A stretch of DNA of 64,000 nucleotides, taken from the NCBI RefSeq assembly GCF_013402915.1, contig NC_050721.1, positions 62,001-126,000 on the forward strand. Direction: 5' to 3'. The DNA is from Zygotorulaspora mrakii. Taxonomy: Eukaryota; Ascomycota; Saccharomycetes; Saccharomycetales; Saccharomycetaceae. The position numbers were made by a program, and so were the translations under genes. Of this stretch, positions 39,293-45,701 are shown piece by piece (position 1 is the stretch's first letter; each line of letters starts with the position of its first letter). Under the pieces are notes generated by a model that saw nothing but the letters and a program-made list of their open reading frames with translations, was not told the DNA's origin and did no database searches.

Positions 39293-39834
39293 ATGTCATC
39301 GCAGAAGAGTATGTCAAGCTGATAAACCTTTCCAGTTCTCTTATTCTTTTTACTAACTGGGACTACCGAATAGTTGACTTAAGCAAGCTGGGACCAGAGC
39401 AATTGGCCGCCGTGAAGCAGCAATTCGATCAGGAGTTGCAGCACTTTACGCAATCCCTACAGGCTCTAACAATTGCCAGAAATAAATTTAGTGAATGCAT
39501 CGAGGATATCAAAACAGTCAGCTCTCCAGAGAATCAAGACCAAAAAATACTAGTCCCCGCTTCAGCATCCCTTTATATCCCGGGCAAGATCGTTGATAAC
39601 CACAAATTCATGGTAGATGTTGGTACAGGCTATTATGTAGACAAGACATCTGAAGACGCAATTGTCTTTTATGAAAAGAAAATTGATAAACTTAACAATG
39701 AAGCAGTGCAAATACAAAACATCATAAAGGAAAAGAACCAGTATTCTCAGGCCATTGAGGTAAGAATAAGACAAACAGCTGCTAGCATGCACGAAGAACG
39801 TAAAAAGTCAGCGCTACAAGGTCAGCAAAAATAG
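39293..39834 (+). CDS. GIM5: Prefoldin subunit 5 (Gim5), spliced
   Basis: A 158-residue alpha-type prefoldin subunit that hands actin and tubulin to the CCT chaperonin. Exon 1 is 39293-39308 and exon 2 is 39374-39834. Splicing joins ATG TCA TCG CAG AAG A to TT GAC TTA AGC, giving MSSQKIDLSKL, which matches S. cerevisiae Gim5 (MSSQKIDLTKL); that orthologue has an intron near the same place. Two coiled-coil helices flank a beta-hairpin core with [17 protein letters not shown] and DVGTGYYV. The tail is basic and Gln-rich. The unspliced transcript would stop after 9 codons. The larger frame starting at 39244 is not the real start. Confidence 0.96.
39309..39373 (+). other. GIM5: GIM5 intron (65 nt)
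   Basis: 5' splice site GTATGT at 39309, branch site TACTAAC at 39351-39357, 3' splice site TAG at 39371-39373. The branch-point A lies 17 nt before the intron end. Confidence 0.95.
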
Positions 39835-43785: not shown

Positions 43786-44394
43786 TCAACAAGCCATTGA
43801 TTGCCATTTCTTAGCTTGAGCTTTCTCTAAATCCATTTTAATCCTACTTGAAGGTCTCTTGACGTGCATGAAATTGCATTCGTTTCCTCTTTCACACGCC
43901 TTCATATCATGTTTTCTGCATATGGCCTCGCGAAAGTCCTCAATATGTGTCAAATCACTATACATGGGTCTCTCGTCATACCATCGGGTATTGAAGTTAT
44001 CTTTGGCACGTTGCGCATCTTGCTCCCTTTCGTAGTACAAATACACATTCCCTTTGAGATGATTGGCGTTTTCACACACGATCATTGAACGTAGTGGGCC
44101 GAATTTGCATGCCTCTATGTAAACGTCTTCATAAAACTGGTCAAATGGAAGCATATCAATCCCACTTTCAGGCATATTTAACAGATTGTGCACAACTAAA
44201 GTGTGCGAGCTAGCTGGACGGACGTGTTGCTTTAGACATTTGTCGCCATGTCGACATGCGCCAATCTTGAAGTAAAAATGACTACACAAAAGTTAGTAAA
44301 CATGTGGCTAGACGGCCCTTAATTCAGTAAAAAATACATACCAGTACTCTCTGCAATCTTGAAAATTTCTTGCATCCTCAGTGTCAGTGGACAT
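43786..44394 (-). CDS. U2AF small subunit (U2AF35/U2AF23), spliced
   Basis: A 182-residue orthologue of S. pombe U2AF23 and human U2AF35, which recognises the AG at the 3' splice site together with U2AF65. Exon 1 is 44342-44394 and exon 2 is 43786-44281; the junction splits the codon for C18 (TG|T). The mature protein has the first CCCH finger C18-x8-C27-x5-C33-x3-H37 (YCHFYFKIGACRHGDKC). A U2AF-homology RRM follows, with FYEDVYIEACKFGPLRSMIVC and the TRWYDERPMYSDL motif that contacts the large subunit. The second CCCH finger is C139-x7-C147-x5-C153-x3-H157. There is no RS tail. S. cerevisiae has no such gene. RTF2 is divergent 155 bp away. Confidence 0.93.
44282..44341 (-). other. Intron of the U2AF35 gene (60 nt)
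   Basis: On the minus strand: GTATGT from 44341, branch site TACTAAC at 44298-44292, and TAG at 44284-44282. Branch A to intron end is about 11 nt. If retained, translation stops inside the intron, before the first zinc finger is complete. Confidence 0.93.
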
Positions 44395-44549
44395 CGTACG
44401 GTTCTTTTAGTCCTGTTTCTTTGCTTGTGTAGTTTGATGAGATAGTTATAAAAATCGATGCGATCGATGTCAAACCCAAAATCAATACACGCTAAAACTT
44501 AAAAGCTCGCAAAAACTGCAATCAGGTGTATTTATTTTATCTGGACATT
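44395..44549. promoter_or_regulatory. Bidirectional promoter of U2AF35 and RTF2
   Basis: The two start codons are back to back with 155 bp between them. All regulatory sequence for both genes must be here or in their introns. Confidence 0.8.
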
Positions 44550-45309
44550 ATGGGAGTATGTGCAGCTATTGCTTGGCAATCTCTACAGACATGCTTTAGA
44601 TGAATTTACTAACAGATTATAGAATGATGGTGGATCTTTTAATAAAGTAAAAAAGCTGAATATTGGTCCGGCTGAGGGTACTAACACAGCCAAAGATGAC
44701 AATATAGAAAGGTTTGCAGTGGATTCGAAATGGAAATACTGCAAATTGTCAAATAAAAGGCTCCAGCTGCCTATAGTGAGCGATTATAAAGGAAACTTAT
44801 TTAATAAAGAGGCAATCCTGGAATGGCTGTTGACGCCAGGACGAGAAGACTACAGCAATGATCAGATTAAAAACTTCTCTCATATAAAAAAATTGGACGA
44901 TGTTATAGAACTCAGAAATCTCAAAGAAATAGAAAGCACTGACGAAGGGCATAACAGTGGTTCCACAATAGTGTGCGAATATGGTGAGGGTGTATTTGGC
45001 AAGTCGGTGACACAATTCATTTATCTTGCTACCTGTGATGATGTACTACCTGTAAAAGCATTGGATTTGGTGAACAAAAAAATCTGTCCAAAGTGTGGCA
45101 TCCCGTATCAGACACTTGATGTGATAATGATATATCCCCCCGGCCTGAATGATGTGAAACGATTGGAGGATCGACATGAAATGCTCAGAAAGGCCAATAA
45201 ACATCATAACGGGAGGAAGAAAAAGCTCAAAAGGAAGAGAGAATCGAAAAATGGGCGCTTATCGCAACTAGTTAAGAATAGAAAAGTGACACCTGATTCT
45301 CTTAAATAA
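44550..45309 (+). CDS. RTF2: Rtf2 (replication termination factor 2 / splicing-linked RING-like protein), spliced
   Basis: A 230-residue orthologue of S. pombe and human RTF2. Exon 1 is just 44550-44555 (ATGGGA) and exon 2 is 44623-45309. Splicing produces MGNDGGS, the invariant N-terminus of Rtf2 proteins. The body carries the RING/U-box-like halves WKYCKLSNKRLQLPIVSDY...LFNKEAILEWLL and ATCDDVLPVKAL...KICPKCGIPYQTLDVIMIYP, then a Lys/Arg-rich tail (KRKRESKNGR). S. pombe Rtf2 acts at the RTS1 replication barrier and is needed for efficient splicing of some introns; plant RTF2 is also a splicing factor; human RTF2 is removed from stalled forks. S. cerevisiae lacks it. The gene shares a short promoter with the divergent U2AF35 gene and converges with COX14. 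Confidence 0.93.
44556..44622 (+). other. RTF2: RTF2 intron (67 nt) with tandem AG acceptors
   Basis: GTATGT at 44556, branch site TACTAAC at 44607-44613, and TAG at 44620-44622. A nearer CAG ends at 44615, only 3 nt after the branch A. Its use would give a stop within a few codons, so the TAG at 44622 is the productive site. Intron retention also hits an early stop. Confidence 0.93.
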
Positions 45310-45494: not shown

Positions 45495-45701
45495 CTATTC
45501 GGCAGAAGACGCAGCACCTTCTAGCTGCTGTAGTTCCTCTTCTTTCTTCTTGTCCGTTACCTGTTTCTCATATTTGGTACCATTCTTGTATAGAGTGTAT
45601 GTTAGGCCCCCCGCCATGTAGATAGAACCACCGATCAGTGTCAAAACCGTCAAACGATGAATAGCATCAGTAACTCTGGTATACCACGCATATCTAGCCA
45701 T
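45495..45701 (-). CDS. COX14: Cox14, cytochrome c oxidase assembly factor
   Basis: A 68-residue mitochondrial inner-membrane protein (S. cerevisiae Cox14, 70 aa) that joins Mss51 and Cox1 in the assembly intermediate coupling Cox1 synthesis to complex IV assembly. Nearly all of the N-terminal half is conserved: [19 protein letters not shown], then one membrane helix [19 protein letters not shown], then a charged Lys/Glu/Gln tail. The frame extends 4 codons upstream from a TTG, but the ATG at 45701 matches the family start. It lies between RTF2 and MSC1; in S. cerevisiae COX14 and MSC1 are also adjacent (YML129C, YML128C). Confidence 0.95.

What the first reader, a model, noticed from the sequence alone, without database searches (positions are those of the whole stretch)
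43786..45309. Divergent U2AF35-RTF2 pair: a possible retained splicing module
Two genes that S. cerevisiae has lost lie back to back with 155 bp between start codons, and each has its own intron. Rtf2 has been shown to support splicing of certain introns in S. pombe and in plants, and U2AF35 reads 3' splice sites. Shared promoter, shared intron dependence and joint absence in S. cerevisiae suggest the two may be kept or lost together. The pair lies between PRE8 and COX14, at a junction of the two S. cerevisiae gene tracks.
Basis: inference. Interest (0 to 1): 0.75.

Follow-up and report, generated by a model that had tools for sequence, protein, structure and literature searches.

The report
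U2AF35 and RTF2, an old pair
Two genes that baker's yeast has lost, one reading the ends of introns and one linked to splicing and DNA copying, sit back to back here and seemingly also in a second yeast genus, but another yeast kept one after losing the other, so they look like old neighbours rather than a unit that must stay together.

Summary
U2AF35 (44394-43786, minus) and RTF2 (44550-45309, plus) diverge with 155 bp between start codons; each has one intron with GTATGT, TACTAAC and TAG. Both belong to their families, and the genome has a likely Mud2 with the U2AF35-docking segment. The adjacency is not private to this species: Lachancea quebecensis carries both on one contig under consecutive gene tags. 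The U2AF35 intron position is typical of the family (PMC4202332). The 'kept or lost together' idea fails its own test: Kazachstania is reported to have lost U2AF1, yet K. africana encodes RTF2. Published intron counts are not higher with U2AF1. Close spacing alone predicts conserved adjacency in yeasts (PMC2258174). Best reading: an ancestral divergent pair over a compact promoter, inherited by synteny, whose members were lost in separate events. A side observation may interest specialists more: this U2AF35 has Leu at the human Ser34 position and Lys at the Gln157 position.

The parts
43786..44394 (-). U2AF35 (U2AF1 / U2AF23-like) gene, 182 aa after splicing; two intact CCCH zinc fingers (C18 C27 C33 H37; C139 C147 C153 H157) around an RRM-like domain
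44282..44341 (-). 60-nt intron of U2AF35: GTATGT donor, TACTAAC, 10 nt to the end of TAG; [quoted passage not shown]
44395..44549 (.). 155-bp divergent intergenic stretch, candidate bidirectional promoter; holds one GATGAG, one TATAAA and two ATCGAT words (no test of function)
44550..45309 (+). RTF2 gene, 230 aa after splicing; Pfam Rtf2; RING histidine position is Asp142
44556..44622 (+). 67-nt intron of RTF2 directly after Met-Gly: GTATGT donor, TACTAAC, 9 nt to the end of TAG; phase 0
   Evidence: proteins P0064 and P0049 look like read-through into the same junction, an inference
45495..45701 (-). flanking gene COX14

Best explanation
The two genes are ancestral neighbours of the family Saccharomycetaceae, transcribed outward from one compact promoter stretch and inherited together in unduplicated lineages because such tight divergent pairs are hard to break. 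U2AF35 works as elsewhere: its two zinc fingers read the UAG at the 3' splice site while its RRM-like domain holds the docking segment of Mud2. RTF2 is an accessory RING-like nuclear protein that helps some introns splice and, in mammals, acts at replication forks. They are not an obligatory unit: U2AF1 and RTF2 were lost in separate events. Shown here: gene models, families, a docking segment in the likely Mud2, adjacency in a second genus by gene tags, presence of RTF2 in K. africana. From print: loss of U2AF1 there, and the roles of both proteins. Inferred: shared promoter activity, ancestral state of the pair, order of losses.
For: Gene models and spacing; families. A likely Mud2 on the same chromosome with a segment aligning to the S. 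pombe U2AF59 chain solved with U2AF23 (E 2.1e-7). L. quebecensis tags LAQU0S12e00606g (P0006) and LAQU0S12e00628g (P0068), contig length 326,296 in both rows; 6 of 6 Lachancea tags are 12 modulo 22, so 22 looks like the step between neighbours. RTF2 in K. africana against loss of U2AF1 in Kazachstania and retention in V. polyspora; V. polyspora also has RTF2. Spacing is the strongest predictor of conserved adjacency; the modelled probability that an average S. cerevisiae pair is adjacent in K. waltii is 0.83 at zero spacing and 0.75 at 500 bp (PMC2258174). Short divergent pairs tend to be the old ones, lower limits about 80-260 bp (PMC3128071).
Against: Adjacency outside the window rests on gene tags of one species; orientation there is unseen. 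The dissociation rests on one species whose U2AF1 loss I took from print. Co-expression is named beside spacing as a main determinant of conserved order in unduplicated species, which leaves room for selection on the pair. Nadsonia carries both genes on contigs of the same length, 2,480,304 (P0010, P0108), distance unknown; if adjacent there, synteny alone would be a weaker explanation, since nearly all synteny is said to be gone at that distance (PMC5499181). The gap is short: 1 of 35 divergent gaps in 264 kb is 155 bp or less (frames of 150 codons or more only, so gaps are overestimated and this pair is not among the 35).
Confidence: 0.78

Rival explanations
1. The first reader's module: U2AF35 and Rtf2 are functionally coupled splicing factors whose shared promoter sets their ratio, and selection keeps or drops them together.
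For: Divergent spacing of 155 bp; adjacency in two genera; Rtf2 loss raises intron retention in S. pombe, with reduced GC content around branch point and 3' splice site of the affected introns (PMC10473836); joint absence in S. cerevisiae; co-expression as a determinant of conserved order.
Against: RTF2 kept without U2AF1 in K. africana. No excess of introns in species with U2AF1. A library search for papers with both U2AF1 and Rtf2 gave 2, neither on this subject by title and start of abstract (the name U2AF35 was not tried with Rtf2).
Confidence: 0.1
2. RTF2 is retained here for DNA replication or ribonucleotide removal, not for splicing, so the two neighbours share no pathway at all (a variant of the best explanation, not exclusive of it).
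For: Mammalian RTF2 brings RNase H2 to the replisome (PMC10908796). RTF2 persists in K. africana without U2AF1. The His of the CGH stretch is Asp in 9 of 14 aligned RTF2 rows, window included, so the RING of these yeasts has drifted.
Against: Splicing defects of rtf2 loss are reported in both S. pombe and Arabidopsis; in S. pombe the fork-barrier effect was explained by splicing of rtf1.
Confidence: 0.3
3. The introns or gene models are wrong and the apparent pair is an annotation artefact.
For: Exon 1 of RTF2 is only six bases; no transcript data were available.
Against: Splicing restores the Met-Gly-Asn-Asp-Gly-Gly start that also opens K. africana RTF2, and the split zinc-finger cysteine reported for the family; both introns carry full consensus signals.
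Confidence: 0.02

Closest known systems
U2AF1 of Saccharomycetaceae (Hooks et al. 2014, PMC4202332)
   Same: Same protein, same intron splitting the first zinc-finger cysteine codon, short branch-to-acceptor distance
   Different: Leu instead of Ser at the position of human Ser34; the neighbouring RTF2 is not discussed in the section and passages read
S. pombe U2AF23-U2AF59 with 3' splice-site RNA (PDB 4yh8, 7c06-7c08)
   Same: Aligns over residues 15-175; the docking segment of the partner is present in this genome's likely Mud2
   Different: Residues 34 and 157 (human numbers) differ; binding not measured
S. pombe Rtf2 (PMC10473836)
   Same: Same Pfam family
   Different: Function untested here; RING histidine position is Asp in this protein
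Old divergent gene pairs of yeasts (PMC2258174, PMC3128071)
   Same: Short shared upstream stretch, adjacency kept across genera
   Different: U2AF1 lost in several lineages, and in K. africana without RTF2

Membership tests
U2AF35 / U2AF1 | Two CCCH zinc fingers of spacing 8-5-3 and 7-5-3 | tested here: met
   Residues C18 C27 C33 H37 and C139 C147 C153 H157; zf-CCCH 35.3 bits
U2AF35 / U2AF1 | RRM-like domain with the aromatic residue that accepts the large subunit | tested here: met
   Aligned through the domain to S. pombe U2AF23; W at residue 118 (that this is the docking residue is recalled). RRM_1 itself scores 19.6, under its cut-off 20.7
U2AF35 / U2AF1 | A large-subunit partner with the docking segment in the same genome | tested here: met
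   Likely Mud2, residues 136-180 of the protein used, aligned to U2AF59 at E 2.1e-7; its match to the U2AF_lg model is 29.5 bits, far under that model's cut-off
U2AF35 / U2AF1 | Recognition of the 3' splice-site AG | not testable with these tools
   Needs binding or splicing assays
RTF2 | Pfam Rtf2 domain over the curated cut-off | tested here: met
   119.4 bits, cut-off 27.4
RTF2 | Zinc ligands of the RING-like part | tested here: inconclusive
   Cys positions 42, 140, 157, 160 invariant in 14 of 14 rows, but the His position is Asp in 9, His in 3, Cys in 2; Asp can be a ligand in some RINGs (recalled)
Conserved divergent gene pair | Adjacency in more than one genus | tested here: met
   Window and L. 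quebecensis by gene tags; orientation in Lachancea unseen
Conserved divergent gene pair | Co-expression from one promoter | not testable with these tools
   No expression data held
Co-retained splicing module | Both genes kept or lost together across yeasts | tested here: not met
   K. africana: RTF2 present, U2AF1 reported lost from Kazachstania

The most novel reading that the evidence does not exclude
In yeasts that keep both, the pair is a feedback unit: one promoter feeds the 3' splice-site reader and a splicing helper, and each product is needed to remove the intron in its own or its neighbour's transcript, so splicing capacity sets its own supply. Loss of U2AF1 broke this circuit in the Kazachstania-Saccharomyces branch and left RTF2 free to be lost later.
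Probability: 0.06. Interest if true: 0.6.

Novelty: new member of a known kind. Interest (0 to 1): 0.3.

Why it matters
U2AF1 loss is a standing case of a spliceosome losing a 3' splice-site reader, and it is debated whether longer branch-to-acceptor distances came before or after (PMC4202332). A neighbour with a splicing role that outlived U2AF1 in K. africana helps to order the events and warns against reading joint absence in S. cerevisiae as one event. The natural Leu34 and Lys157 residues offer a ready comparison for the two human cancer hot spots of U2AF1.

Tried and rejected
Co-loss as the explanation: rejected on K. africana. Intron number as a correlate: ten species without U2AF1 as named against the other ten of that table (three of these said to possess it, seven by implication), Mann-Whitney p = 0.08 in the opposite direction. 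Other splicing factors in this genome: Pfam SNRNP27 and Sde2 gave nothing, but nothing rang in the controls either, so no conclusion; Methyltransf_10 (METTL16) gave nothing while 5 of 14 controls rang. Intron survey: 264 kb of this chromosome, 20 candidates printed, 14 dropped by eye as chance; six kept (U2AF35, RTF2, and genes that I recognise as GIM5, RPS21, PHO85 and VPH1-like; names recalled, PHO85 donor uncertain). Their branch-to-acceptor distances are 9, 10, 16, 16, 21, 21 and 5 of 6 end in TAG: too few to test the Leu34 effect. Promoter words: nothing beyond chance claimed. Ancestral genome paper PMC2675101: 88 lost loci stated, neither gene named in its main text. Gene-tag search in the paper library: 0 papers.

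Full report
What is there. Two divergent genes lie at 43786-44394 (minus) and 44550-45309 (plus), with 155 bp between the start codons. The first encodes a 182-residue U2AF35: both zinc fingers are intact and the protein aligns to S. pombe U2AF23 over residues 15-175 at 164.9 bits. The second encodes a 230-residue RTF2 (Pfam Rtf2, 119.4 bits), with one match over the cut-off in the genome. Each has one short intron with GTATGT, TACTAAC and TAG, and each frame stops early if unspliced. The flanks match a proteasome alpha subunit, Utp14 and COX14.

Are the introns old? For U2AF35, yes: Hooks et al. (PMC4202332, section 10 read in full) report Tetrapisispora blattae and T. [quoted passage not shown] the window's intron is in that place. 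For RTF2 the evidence is weaker. The unnamed protein P0064 reads into exon 2 with residues that fit TTTACTAAC followed by 21 nt ending in CAG, and P0049 begins just upstream of the same junction. Against this, the records of V. polyspora (P0054) and L. lanzarotensis (P0066) run on upstream of Met-Gly, which may mean that these species have no intron there. By the same reading of protein letters P0003, P0004 and P0005 carry the U2AF35 intron with 8, 9 and 14 nt after TACTAAC. All this is inference.

Is the adjacency shared? In Lachancea quebecensis U2AF35 is LAQU0S12e00606g and RTF2 is LAQU0S12e00628g, both with contig length 326,296 bp. All six Lachancea tags in those two lists leave the remainder 12 when divided by 22, which fits a step of 22 per gene (the convention itself is recalled), so these are consecutive genes. 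Orientation there was not seen. In Nadsonia fulvescens both proteins come from contigs of the same length, 2,480,304 bp, at unknown distance. So adjacency is not private to this species.

Are they kept and lost together? No. Hooks et al. name C. glabrata, K. lactis, Saccharomyces, Kazachstania and Naumovozyma as having lost U2AF1; K. africana and K. naganishii are the Kazachstania in their table. K. africana encodes a full RTF2 (KAFR_0A02990, 222 aa, 194 bits and E 8.3e-52 with the window protein alone; its 309 bits do not count, as it was part of that query). Monosporozyma unispora has one too (MOUN0_L00298, 230 aa, 234 bits, not in the query); the taxonomy lists it in its own genus, I recall it as a former Kazachstania, and its U2AF1 status is not known to me. 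V. polyspora has U2AF1 and RTF2 (Kpol_455p3). V. polyspora and Tetrapisispora are placed as the duplicated species most distant from S. cerevisiae, so U2AF1 probably went first, before Kazachstania and Saccharomyces parted, and RTF2 later in the S. cerevisiae line. Eight named species of the family have RTF2 (21 hits, all listed; 120 listed of 1842): K. africana, M. unispora, V. polyspora, Torulaspora globosa, and Lachancea 'fantastica', lanzarotensis, quebecensis and nothofagi. No row listed there is named as Eremothecium, Kluyveromyces, Naumovozyma, C. glabrata or Saccharomyces; many rows have no name. As Hooks et al. do not name Eremothecium among the losers of U2AF1, it may be the reverse case, U2AF1 without RTF2, but the search can miss genes and I do not count it.

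Does intron load go with U2AF1? In the published table the median is 200.5 introns in ten species with U2AF1 (seven of them by implication) and 249.5 in the ten without (p = 0.08), opposite to the idea; the table counts introns with S. cerevisiae counterparts, so it is biased. What does go with U2AF1, with exceptions in Vanderwaltozyma and Tetrapisispora, is a short branch-to-acceptor distance. Six introns judged real in 264 kb here have 9 to 21 nt, in keeping with a U2AF1 species. A protein on the same chromosome that is most likely Mud2 has the docking segment.

Why the pair may persist without special coupling. Poyatos and Hurst (PMC2258174, passages) found spacing the strongest predictor of conserved adjacency, as a neutral model expects; they also name co-expression as a main determinant in unduplicated species, which favours the rival view. 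Chen et al. (PMC3128071, passages) found that short divergent regions gain weight among the older pairs. In 264 kb of this chromosome 1 of 35 divergent gaps between frames of 150 codons or more is 155 bp or shorter; shorter and intron-bearing genes, this pair included, are not in that count, so the gaps are overestimated. A shared promoter is thus likely but untested, and needs no common pathway.

What the partners do. U2AF1 reads the acceptor AG; structures with RNA exist (PMC7505975, passages). S. pombe Rtf2 associates with splicing factors and its loss raises intron retention, and a plant study agrees, but whether it acts directly is open (PMC10473836, passages). Mammalian RTF2 brings RNase H2 to the replisome (PMC10908796, passages). 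PMC8496845 (passages) ties U2AF1 loss to looser acceptor choice. PMC10581693 (outline and passages) does not mention RTF2 in its main text. PMC5499181 was seen in passages, PMC2675101 in passages and abstract.

A side finding. In an alignment of the window protein with 17 of the 42 hits, the residue matching human Ser34 is Leu here and Ser in 15 of the 15 other rows that cover it (2 rows do not). The residue matching Gln157 is Lys, Arg or Asn in 9 of 9 rows of the window's own group (window, three named Saccharomycetaceae and five unnamed relatives at 60% identity or more) and Gln in 9 of 9 others, Nadsonia and Babjeviella included. In the solved complexes S34F and S34Y show little discrimination at -3; the yeast match of Gln157, Gln151, lies by the bases at -1 and +1, and Q151R binds UAG sites more tightly. 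So this group has fixed, at a human cancer hot spot, a change of the same kind as Q157R. What Leu34 does is unknown.

Verdict. Observation confirmed; neighbours confirmed by tags in a second genus; co-retention contradicted by K. africana. An ordinary, old divergent pair with an informative loss pattern.

Noticed in passing
window 44394-43786, residues 34 and 141 of the protein: U2AF35 has Leu at the human Ser34 position (only this row of 16 that cover it) and Lys at the human Gln157 position (Lys/Arg/Asn in 9 of 9 rows of its group, Gln in 9 of 9 others); both are cancer hot spots of human U2AF1.
   Followed up: partly
window 45034-45042, residues 140-142 of RTF2: The RING CGH stretch reads CDD here; the His position is Asp in 9 of 14 aligned rows, His in 3 and Cys in 2.
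   Followed up: partly
window 39309-39373 (+): A third intron gene lies close by: a prefoldin-like GIM5 frame (name recalled) with GTATGT, TACTAAC and TAG, 65 nt.
   Followed up: no
G000:C6:732770-733063 (L037): Weak second match to Pfam Rtf2 (23.9 bits, under the cut-off) inside a 641-codon frame.
   Followed up: no
Nadsonia fulvescens proteins P0010 and P0108: U2AF35 and RTF2 come from contigs of identical length (2,480,304 bp), so probably one scaffold; if adjacent, the linkage would be far older than the family.
   Followed up: no
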